Under the pieces are notes generated by a model. That model made no database searches and was not told the DNA's origin. It saw nothing but the letters and a program-made list of their open reading frames with translations. A stretch of DNA of 38,313 nt from NCBI GenBank assembly GCA_013298375.1, contig JAAFHM010000003.1, positions 1 through 38,313 of the forward strand. The letters are read 5' to 3'. This document shows positions 12,535 through 14,741 of this stretch, one piece after another; position 1 is the first letter of the stretch, and every line of letters begins with the position of its first letter. A program made the position numbers and the translations under genes. The stretch comes from Ignavibacteria bacterium. Its GTDB lineage: Bacteria; Bacteroidota; Ignavibacteria; Kapaibacteriales; UBA4661.

Positions 12535-12671
12535 TCACTTTTTTGCATAATTCTCTTGCATACGTGAAATATTTCGCGTATATTTGTAGTGTAATTAAAA
12601 ACAAGCGCGGGCAAACTACCAAATTCACACCGCGCTTGAAATTCCAAAAAATCTTTTCGGAGAACAAATAT
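12535..12671 (+). promoter_or_regulatory. Promoter/operator/leader cassette L1
   Basis: TTG (12556-12558)-N20-TATATTTG (12579-12586); dyad ACGTGAAATATTTCGCGT 12562-12579; leader hairpin 12602-12638; TTCC/GGAG pairing before ATG. 70/72 identical to L2 over the first 72 bp. Confidence 0.8.
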
Positions 12672-13028
12672 ATGAAAACGCAACTTAAAAAGCATTTTGT
12701 GATTCCCATTATTGCAGAAGGTTTCCCCTGTCCAGCAGTAATGATTAGCGGGCATCTTTATTGGCTCGAAGGCGAAGCGAACTGCGGCATTCACGAGTTG
12801 GTTTCTGGTTATGCACCAATTTTCAAACTAAAGCGTGAATTTTTGAACGATGATGGTTATGAACAAATTCCGTTAAAATTGGCAATAGAGTTTATCGAAA
12901 ACAAAGGAGGGGTTTGGGTAAAAGAAAATTTTGACACATCAAGCGTTGATGATTTAAGAGAAATTAAAGAACAACTTCCTCTGCGCTGGGTAGAACTGTT
13001 TAACGATTATCTTTCAAACTTGGATTAA
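12672..13028 (+). CDS. Hypothetical accessory protein (118 aa)
   Basis: ATG directly after the L1 leader. Confidence 0.65.
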   Translation: MKTQLKKHFVIPIIAEGFPCPAVMISGHLYWLEGEANCGIHELVSGYAPIFKLKREFLNDDGYEQIPLKLAIEFIENKGGVWVKENFDTSSVDDLREIKEQLPLRWVELFNDYLSNLD

Positions 13029-13064
13029 ATAATCGCAAAAATTGAATCGTAAACAAGAGCAACA

Positions 13065-13091
13065 TCTCTGTCGTGCAATGCACGACAGAGA
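13065..13091. repeat. Perfect inverted repeat, 13-bp arms
   Basis: TCTCTGTCGTGCA-A-TGCACGACAGAGA between two co-oriented genes. Confidence 0.9.
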
Positions 13092-13120
13092 CTTTCTAAA
13101 AAAATCACAAATAAAAAGCT

Positions 13121-13486
13121 ATGAAAAAAAACGCAACACAACGCTACTTTCTCATTCAAGAGAAAATTTTTTCGGCAAGCAAATTCGAGCTAGAAATGAA
13201 TGAAAATATCAAAGGTTCAAACCCTGTTGTGATTGAATTGCACACAGAAGAGGATTTTTACAATCATCATCAAAAAATTGGTCATTATTTTCTCTTGCAA
13301 ACAGGACTTAACGTTGAAGGCGAAGCGCACAGAGGGCAACATTATTCAACATTTTCGTATGGACAGCGTAAAATTATTGATGAAGTGATGTATAAGAACG
13401 CAAGCAATTTCAAGGAAGAGCGCGATTGGCGAGAATACGTGAGCGCAGAAATATTGCACGAGGCACTAGAAGGAGAAAGGGCTTGA
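13121..13486 (+). CDS. Hypothetical accessory protein
   Basis: 121-aa ORF in a plus-strand gene series. Confidence 0.6.
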   Translation: MKKNATQRYFLIQEKIFSASKFELEMNENIKGSNPVVIELHTEEDFYNHHQKIGHYFLLQTGLNVEGEAHRGQHYSTFSYGQRKIIDEVMYKNASNFKEERDWREYVSAEILHEALEGERA

Positions 13487-13491
13487 AAATC

Positions 13492-13578
13492 ATGAAACTC
13501 TCACGCAAAGAACTCGAAGAGCAATCGCTTTGCAACGCATTCCGCGAAGCAAAGGCGCGGCGAGGACAAATAAAATAA
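13492..13578 (+). CDS. Possible small protein MKLSRKELEEQSLCNAFREAKARRGQIK
   Basis: ATG-stop of 28 codons in the gap between two accessory genes. Confidence 0.3.
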   Translation: MKLSRKELEEQSLCNAFREAKARRGQIK

Positions 13579-13612
13579 CACGCAAATTTTCACGACATAA
13601 AATAGACGCATT

Positions 13613-13993
13613 ATGAATTTAAGCAATGTGAACTTAGAAAATCTGAGAGGAGTTTTTTCCTTCTCTCAGGAAGAAAATATTGTATGGGGGCAATATATGA
13701 TGTATTTCGAGCAATTTATGCTTGATTTAGGGCTTCCTGTTGATGTAGAAATTCAAACGGGTTCTGACCAAGTGCGATTTTTTGTAAAGCCCAGAACAAG
13801 CGAAAGATTAGAGGAGGTCCGGGAGTTTTTAGACTATTATTTGCAAGCACCTCAAACAAAAGACTTTTCAAAAGCATTTTCCTTTGAGCGTGATGACATA
13901 GCCGTAACACAATGGAAAAACAACGTTCAGCATTTATTGATGCAATTAGATCTGTTAAAAAGCATCGAACAACTCCGCAATGAATCTAGATAA
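13613..13993 (+). CDS. Hypothetical accessory protein
   Basis: 126-aa ORF. Confidence 0.6.
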   Translation: MNLSNVNLENLRGVFSFSQEENIVWGQYMMYFEQFMLDLGLPVDVEIQTGSDQVRFFVKPRTSERLEEVREFLDYYLQAPQTKDFSKAFSFERDDIAVTQWKNNVQHLLMQLDLLKSIEQLRNESR

Positions 13994-14010
13994 AAAAGTA
14001 AAAAAAAAAT

Positions 14011-14262
14011 ATGGACAGATACACAGCAAAACAAGTCTGCGAGGCGCTCAAAATCTCCCGAACCAGGCTTTCCGAATACACAAACGGTAAAGAGTCAAAA
14101 CGTAAAGGGCGAGTTGAGTGGTCAACACCTGCGATACTAAGCGAAGGCGTAGATTTTGAACACGTCATAGAAAGAGGTCGGTCAAAGGCGTACTATTTCC
14201 CCAGCGCGATAGAGAAGATACGCACCAAGCGCGGGGAAGGGAAACCGCCAGAAGACGCATAA
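14011..14262 (+). CDS. HTH DNA-binding protein (MerR/excisionase-like)
   Basis: MDRYTAKQVCEALKISRTRLSEYTNGKESKRKGRVEWSTPAILSEGVDF. Confidence 0.6.
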   Translation: MDRYTAKQVCEALKISRTRLSEYTNGKESKRKGRVEWSTPAILSEGVDFEHVIERGRSKAYYFPSAIEKIRTKRGEGKPPEDA

Positions 14263-14285
14263 AACCTCAATTTGAAAAAATATTT

Positions 14286-14421
14286 TCACTTTTTTGCATA
14301 ATTCTCTTGCATACGCGAAATATTTCACGTATATTTGTAGTGTAATTAAAAACAAGCCCTGCACAACCTACTAAAATCACGCAGGACTTGACTTCCAAAA
14401 ACTACTTTTCGGAGACGCAAT
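14286..14421 (+). promoter_or_regulatory. Promoter/operator/leader cassette L2
   Basis: Same architecture as L1: dyad ACGCGAAATATTTCACGT 14313-14330, TATATTTG, hairpin CAAGCCCTGC/GCAGGACTTG 14353-14390, TTCC...CGGAG before ATG. Confidence 0.8.
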
Positions 14422-14658
14422 ATGCAAAACCAAACAAACGCTTCCAATGATGAATTGCTTTTCCAAGCAATGCGTATTCAGGAAGTCGCTACGAAGGCAG
14501 AATTTGCAGCGACAACACTCAACAATTTTTTACATACACCGTACAATTTGGTATTTAAGAATCAAGACGATGTAAACATCTTGAAACAAGCGCAGCAAAT
14601 TCTCGCAAAAATCAACAGCCGCGATGCTTTTGAAAAATTGGCAGAACAAATGATATAA
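14422..14658 (+). CDS. Small hypothetical protein, paralogue of the next gene
   Basis: LLFQAMRIQEVATKAEFAATTLNNFL versus LLSQAMRMHDVATKVEGVTKLLKEIL. Confidence 0.65.
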   Translation: MQNQTNASNDELLFQAMRIQEVATKAEFAATTLNNFLHTPYNLVFKNQDDVNILKQAQQILAKINSRDAFEKLAEQMI

Positions 14659-14669
14659 ACCAAACAAAC

Positions 14670-14741
14670 GCAGCGCCGCCCAAGCCTAGAAAACACAAGC
14701 GGCGCTGCTTTTTCCAAAATTACCATTTCGGAAATCGCAAT
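14670..14741 (+). promoter_or_regulatory. Leader element L3 (hairpin plus TTCC...CGGAAA RBS region)
   Basis: GCAGCGCCGC/GCGGCGCTGC (14670-14708), 19-nt loop, then TTTTTCCAAAATTACCATTTCGGAAATCGCAAT before ATG 14742. Confidence 0.65.

What the first reader, a model, noticed from the sequence alone, without database searches (positions are those of the whole stretch)
12535..14741. Repeated leader RNA with covarying stem and conserved loop upstream of small accessory genes
Three leaders (12602-12671, 14353-14421, 14670-14741) share a 9-10 bp stem, an 18-19 nt A/C-rich loop (CAA-C-TA...AAA...CAC) and a downstream TTCCAAAA...TTTCGGA..CAAT-ATG block. Stem sequences differ (CAAGCGCGG/CCGCGCTTG; CAAGCCCTGC/GCAGGACTTG; GCAGCGCCGC/GCGGCGCTGC) while pairing is kept, which is evidence for RNA structure. 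TTCC can pair with the CGGAG/GGAA region, potentially masking the RBS. This looks like a modular translational control element or protein-binding RNA that I cannot match to a known family.
Basis: partly seen in the sequence, partly recalled or inferred. Interest (0 to 1): 0.75.

Follow-up and report, generated by a model that had tools for sequence, protein, structure and literature searches.

The report
Phage gene-start RNA hairpin leader
A small RNA hairpin with a fixed loop and freely changing stem sits just before the start of many unrelated accessory genes in a group of temperate phages of Ignavibacteria-like bacteria, and most likely controls how strongly those genes are translated.

Summary
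Confirmed and extended. The three leaders in the window are real: each has a 9-10 bp hairpin, an 18-19 nt A/C-rich loop and an SD-bearing block before ATG. I found 12 more, giving 15 leaders in 9 phage-like elements: the window's genome, two congeners, a sister genus and three IMG/VR contigs. They precede 10 unrelated protein families. Stem pairs covary (9 of 11 with changes on both sides). The loop is better conserved than the stem (67% vs 38% identity between stem types), and two leaders in one contig carry the same loop on different stems. Rfam has no match.

The leaders sit in accessory-gene ('moron'-like) cassettes, mostly beside the attachment site and the convergent late operon. In an SD-poor genome 12 of 15 leaders carry a strong SD, and their first codons are A/C-rich. 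My best reading is a mobile translation-initiation cassette whose constant loop is probably read by a trans factor, which I did not identify. Nearest known kind: SAS/ESAS start-associated repeats of mycobacteriophages, which lack covariation.

The parts
12556..12586 (+). promoter-like TTGC ... TATATTTG (Bacteroidota-type -33/-7, from established knowledge) containing palindrome ATACGTGAAATATTTCGCGTAT (12560-12581), likely repressor operator
   Evidence: same layout in L015, L128, L319
12602..12638 (+). leader 1 hairpin: CAAGCGCGG / CCGCGCTTG, loop GCAAACTACCAAATTCACA
12642..12671 (+). leader 1 linker TTCCAAAAAATCTTTTCGGAG...; SD-like GGAG 12659-12662, 9 nt before ATG 12672
12672..13028 (+). 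accessory ORF (118 aa) behind leader 1, no known family
14011..14262 (+). 83-aa HTH protein gene, no leader; family present in 6 of 9 leader-bearing elements, next to the cassettes; candidate repressor of the palindromic promoters
14307..14337 (+). second copy of the promoter with palindrome 14311-14332
14353..14390 (+). leader 2 hairpin: CAAGCCCTGC / GCAGGACTTG (one C.A mismatch), loop ACAACCTACTAAAATCAC
14393..14421 (+). leader 2 linker TTCCAAAAACTACTTTTCGGAGACGCAAT; SD-like GGAG 14411-14414
14422..14658 (+). accessory ORF (78 aa), family found behind 5 leaders in 4 elements
14670..14708 (+). leader 3 hairpin (intercistronic, no promoter of its own): GCAGCGCCGC / GCGGCGCTGC, loop CCAAGCCTAGAAAACACAA
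14712..14741 (+). leader 3 linker with TTCCAAAATTACCATTTCGGAA
14742..14975 (+). accessory ORF (77 aa), paralogue of 14422-14658
14983..15004 (+). intrinsic-terminator-like hairpin closing the cassette

Best explanation
It is a phage-carried cis-acting RNA element, a translation-initiation leader for accessory genes. The transcript begins about 10 nt before the hairpin (inferred from the promoter position) or reads into it from an upstream cistron. The hairpin, a GC-rich stem of any sequence, presents an 18-19 nt A/C-rich loop with consensus CAA-C-UAC-AA---CAC. About 20 nt downstream lies a strong Shine-Dalgarno sequence and then an A/C-rich coding start, in a lineage whose genes rarely carry SD sequences. 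The unit is reused in front of unrelated genes and in front of internal cistrons, so it acts per cistron, on translation or local mRNA stability rather than on transcription start. Because the loop is kept while the stem changes, the loop is probably read by a trans-acting factor (host or phage) that sets translation of these accessory genes. Transcription is separately controlled by palindromic operators, probably by the neighbouring HTH protein. Shown: structure, covariation, loop conservation, placement, SD enrichment, distribution. Inferred: translation role, trans factor, direction of the effect.
For: Covariation of the stem. Same loop on different stems within one contig (L303A/B). Loop identity 0.67 vs stem identity 0.38 between stem types. 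10 unrelated protein families behind 15 leaders. The hairpin also stands before internal cistrons without a promoter (w3, L303B). SD-like GGAG/AGGA/GAGG in 12 of 15 leaders vs 14-17% of ORFs in 220 kb of a congener. A+C of codons 2-7 is 0.77 vs 0.60, 0/10000 resamples (leaders are related, so this is indicative). Different promoters and regulators share the same leader. The leader is kept between phages whose late proteins share only 22-26% identity.
Against: No trans factor was found: no protein is shared by all nine elements, though several are fragments. One leader (L303B) has no SD. One cassette with the same promoter (L304a) lacks the leader. Stems contain no G.U pair, and the only mismatches (C.A) would be G.U on the other strand, which is odd for a + strand RNA. 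The loop pairs with nothing nearby. No expression data.
Confidence: 0.5

Rival explanations
1. Passive 5' stabiliser or standby-site hairpin: the stem protects the mRNA end and the A/C-rich loop and linker simply stay unstructured so that ribosomes can load; no trans factor reads the loop.
For: Stem sequence free, loop A/C-rich and G-poor, hairpin close to the presumed 5' end in promoter-linked copies; A/C-rich coding starts.
Against: Composition alone would not keep CAA-C-UAC-AA. Copies w3 and L303B are internal, not at a 5' end.
Confidence: 0.22
2. One reading: the small second hairpin (UUCC with GGAG) masks the SD, and something bound to hairpin 1 opens it.
For: UUCC and GGA(G) occur together in 10 of 15 leaders and fold in several (-2 to -5 kcal/mol for the window copies); in w3 GGAG to GGAA keeps a U-A pair.
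Against: UUCC is lost in C128, L014, L303A and L303B, GGAG is lost in L303A, L303B and L319, yet hairpin 1 and loop stay. The second helix is weak. L009/L113 prefer another fold.
Confidence: 0.1
3. Minus-strand terminator or insulator: read on the other strand, the hairpin is followed by a U-rich tract and stops antisense transcription from the convergent late operon.
For: An A-rich tract precedes the stem in all copies, hence a U-rich tract on the minus strand; copy 2 is called minus-strand terminator-like; C.A mismatches become G.U on that strand; late genes converge on the cassettes.
Against: 18-19 nt conserved loop, constant distance to the SD and placement before internal cistrons are unexplained. 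A-rich leaders are expected anyway.
Confidence: 0.08
4. Antitermination element of nut/put type that lets polymerase pass the terminators between cassettes.
For: Hairpin early in the transcript; terminator-like hairpins follow several cassette genes.
Against: Internal copies and the link to the SD and start codon; no Rfam match.
Confidence: 0.05
5. DNA-level element (single-strand hairpin or recombination site) that lets accessory genes be swapped.
For: Genes behind identical leaders are swapped between phages (L015a vs L128a); absence of G.U pairs.
Against: One-sided: the hairpin is always before an ATG, mostly with a set spacing; swaps are explained by homologous recombination in the shared promoter-leader.
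Confidence: 0.05

Closest known systems
Start-Associated and Extended Start-Associated Sequences (SAS/ESAS) of Cluster K mycobacteriophages (PMC3203893) and Microbacterium EF phages (PMC7302621)
   Same: Repeated phage element directly upstream of start codons of a subset of unrelated non-structural genes, contains an RBS-like core, many with an inverted repeat upstream; phage-lineage specific; function unproven.
   Different: In ESAS the repeat sequence is conserved and changes do not support RNA pairing (PMC3203893 says so). Here the stem sequence is free with covariation and the loop is conserved. 13-bp SAS consensus differs; different hosts.
Moron / lysogenic-conversion cassettes of temperate phages (from general knowledge)
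   Same: Small accessory genes with own promoter and terminator, near the late operon and attachment site, swapped between related phages.
   Different: A shared structured leader across unrelated morons is not part of the usual description.
5' UTR hairpin stabilisers and ribosomal-protein-type leader RNAs (from general knowledge)
   Same: Hairpin in a leader near the SD.
   Different: Not tied to one gene family; constant loop across 10 families; no Rfam match.
SD-dependent rpsU control in Flavobacteriales (bS21; PMC9976891, abstract only)
   Same: A strong SD in an SD-poor lineage.
   Different: No link to bS21 was tested here; the host is Ignavibacteria-like and its anti-SD state is unknown.

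Membership tests
Rfam families (release 15) | score at or above gathering cut-off | tested here: not met
   only two tRNA hits in the window; best sub-threshold hit at the leader RsaE 19.8 bits vs cut-off 79, E 3.6
SAS/ESAS | repeat immediately upstream of start codons of several unrelated phage genes | tested here: met
   15 leaders, 10 families
SAS/ESAS | conserved 13-bp GGGATAGGAGCCC-type core | tested here: not met
   core here is TTTCGGA(G), absent in three leaders
SAS/ESAS | conserved-sequence inverted repeat without base-pair compensation | tested here: not met
   stem covaries, sequence free
cis-regulatory structured RNA | covarying helix upstream of coding regions | tested here: met
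   9 of 11 pairs changed on both sides, covariation score 0.657 vs 0.183 shuffled; R-scape itself not available
cis-regulatory structured RNA | effect on expression | not testable with these tools
   needs reporter or RNA-seq data
phage moron cassette | own promoter and terminator, accessory gene, variable between relatives | tested here: met
   the promoter part fails for the internal copies w3 and L303B
intrinsic terminator (minus strand) | GC stem, short loop, U-tract | tested here: inconclusive
   U-rich tract on the minus strand but 18-19 nt conserved loop; scan calls copy 2 only
SD-masking thermosensor or switch | conserved anti-SD pairing | tested here: not met
   pairing absent in 5 of 15 leaders

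The most novel reading that the evidence does not exclude
A phage-wide post-transcriptional regulon: one trans-acting factor recognises the conserved loop and coordinately sets translation of otherwise unrelated lysogeny genes, so that any accessory gene placed behind the leader joins the regulon.
Probability: 0.3. Interest if true: 0.72.

Novelty: new variant of a known kind. Interest (0 to 1): 0.52.

Why it matters
Temperate phages carry many small genes of unknown use and little is known of how they are switched on together. A portable RNA leader that is kept while the gene behind it is exchanged would show post-transcriptional control of lysogenic-conversion genes, and gives a handle for finding such genes and the factor that reads the loop. 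It also offers a case of strong Shine-Dalgarno use inside an SD-poor bacterial group.

Tried and rejected
MAFFT alone misregisters the stems, so the alignment was made by a covariance model. Weak model hits in other families and loci (L026, L049, L292-L295, L306, L442) lack the loop or the architecture and were rejected as chance. The C573 match (L006) lies within what reads as the start of a permease-like coding sequence and is taken as chance. Degenerate-pattern scans returned mostly chance hits; true hits were kept only if hairpin and loop were present. Loop pairing with downstream sequence or with other places in the window: nothing beyond shuffled loops. The 78-aa protein as RNA-binding factor: model mean pLDDT 71 with no confident PDB match, weak VapB-like hint only. 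Accessory genes against PADLOC: nothing significant. Host 16S for loop or SD complementarity: no match in any of the eight genus genomes searched. tRNA D-loop complementarity of the loop was considered and dropped because loop variants break it.

Full report
OBSERVATION. Hairpin arms are 12602-12610/12630-12638, 14353-14362/14381-14390 and 14670-14679/14699-14708 with loops of 19, 18 and 19 nt. Copy 2 has one C.A mismatch. All three fold far better than dinucleotide shuffles. Copies 1 and 2 also share an 82-nt promoter region at 93% identity, with a 22-nt palindrome between TTGC and TATATTTG. Copy 3 is intercistronic.

MORE COPIES. BLAST in the window's own genome added L003 (C128) and L004 (C545). 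A protein search with the 78-aa family and a DNA search in the genus added L009, L015 and a truncated L014. A covariance model (R1) confirmed these and found a second copy in L015. Pattern scans plus models added IMG/VR contigs L113 and L128 (two copies) and L319. A search with the HTH protein led to L303 in a sister genus with two copies. Total: 15 leaders in 9 elements. One congener contig is named in GenBank as 'Ignavibacteria bacterium isolate Clear-D13'. Searches of 201 class, 101 order and 399 phylum genomes gave no convincing case outside the window's own family; those large searches used stricter filters that lose weak matches.

STRUCTURE. On 13 aligned leaders the stem has 88% paired cells against 59% in shuffles and 30-42% when slid; 9 of 11 pairs have changes on both sides and none has one-sided changes. 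R-scape was not available, and the alignment was fitted to the structure, which leans towards it; but the stems are near-perfect Watson-Crick helices by direct reading, so the conclusion does not depend on the fit. The loop is more conserved than the stem (0.67 vs 0.38 identity between leaders of different stem type). The neatest case is L303, where the 19-nt loop GCAAACAACCAAATTCACA is carried by two entirely different stems.

WHAT IS NOT CONSERVED. In L319 the linker is longer and carries another hairpin before a different SD. SD masking is therefore not a defining part.

SURROUNDINGS. The window is a phage-plasmid-like contig: Rep3 initiator, ParA, ParB and a resolvase on one side, and portal, protease, major head, tape measure and methyltransferase genes on the other. 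The leader cassettes lie between parB and the convergent late operon. In G006 the same arrangement is a prophage beside tRNA-Pro with two leaders at one end and one beside an integrase and a HEPN gene at the other, so the cassettes flank the attachment site. L128 (tRNA-Arg) and L319 (a tRNA-like 3' end read directly from the sequence) show the same layout. Late proteins of these phages are only 22-26% identical. A 76-83 aa HTH protein follows the first cassette in five elements and is fused to a leader-bearing ORF in L303; it is the family found in most elements, 6 of 9. Elements with the ATACGT...ACGTAT operator (window, L015, L128, L304, L319) all carry this HTH gene next to it; L009 and L113 have an XRE-type gene upstream and C545 a divergent HTH-like reading frame, with other promoter palindromes (these three regulators were read from the translations, not tested against a library). 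So transcription control varies while the leader is constant.

GENES BEHIND THE LEADERS. 15 leaders precede 10 protein families with no detectable similarity to each other, nearly all without known domain. L015a and L128a show a clean swap of the gene between a shared leader and a shared terminator and HTH gene.

FUNCTION. Three facts point to translation. The leader goes with the cistron, including internal ones (w3, L303B), not with the promoter. 12 of 15 leaders carry GGAG/AGGA/GAGG at SD distance, against 14-17% of ORFs in 220 kb of a congener (crude ORF calling). The first codons are A/C-rich (0.77 vs 0.60), and unrelated genes w2 and L015a share nearly the same first 20 nt. The conserved loop over variable stems suggests recognition by a trans factor. 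None was found: the loop is not complementary to nearby sequence and no protein is common to all elements, some of which are fragments.

STRAND CAVEAT. No stem contains a G.U pair, the two independent mismatches are C.A (G.U on the other strand), and the A-rich tract before the stem reads as a U-rich tract on the minus strand. A minus-strand terminator is thus a live but minor rival; the A/C-rich, G-poor loop and the fixed relation to SD and ATG favour the + strand.

KNOWN RELATIVES. The nearest published kind is SAS/ESAS of Cluster K mycobacteriophages, for which the authors state that repeat changes do not support RNA pairing (PMC3203893). The present element is start-associated in the same way but is a covarying hairpin with a conserved loop. 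No Rfam family matches.

Noticed in passing
window 8752-12358 and 15008-38307: Contig looks like a phage-plasmid: serine resolvase, Rep3 initiator, ParA and ParB beside a late phage operon on the other strand.
   Followed up: partly
window 1683-1758 (-), 1550-1622 (-); L453:4354-4427, 4800-4873: ARAGORN reports a tRNA with a four-base anticodon (ccat) next to a tRNA-Met; the G006 prophage has a similar pair (tacg + Met).
   Followed up: no
window 12560-12581, 14311-14332; L015, L128, L304, L319 promoters: Palindromic operator-like sequence between -33 and -7 boxes (ATACGT...ACGTAT), in every such element with the small HTH gene nearby; C128, L303A, L009, L113 have other palindromes at the same place.
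   Followed up: partly
window 13065-13091: Perfect 13-bp inverted repeat with a 1-nt centre between two small genes, not related to the leaders.
   Followed up: no
window 3181-4293 and 4714-5769: HSDR_N-like and Mrr-type restriction endonuclease-like genes shared by three leader-bearing phages.
   Followed up: no
L304 671-1870: Small element between two copies of the tRNA-Ser 3' end, holding promoter, gene, HTH gene and a second promoter whose leader is cut by the att core.
   Followed up: partly
all leader stems (window copies at 12602-12638, 14353-14390, 14670-14708): No G.U pairs in at least seven distinct stems; mismatches only C.A. Unexplained.
   Followed up: partly
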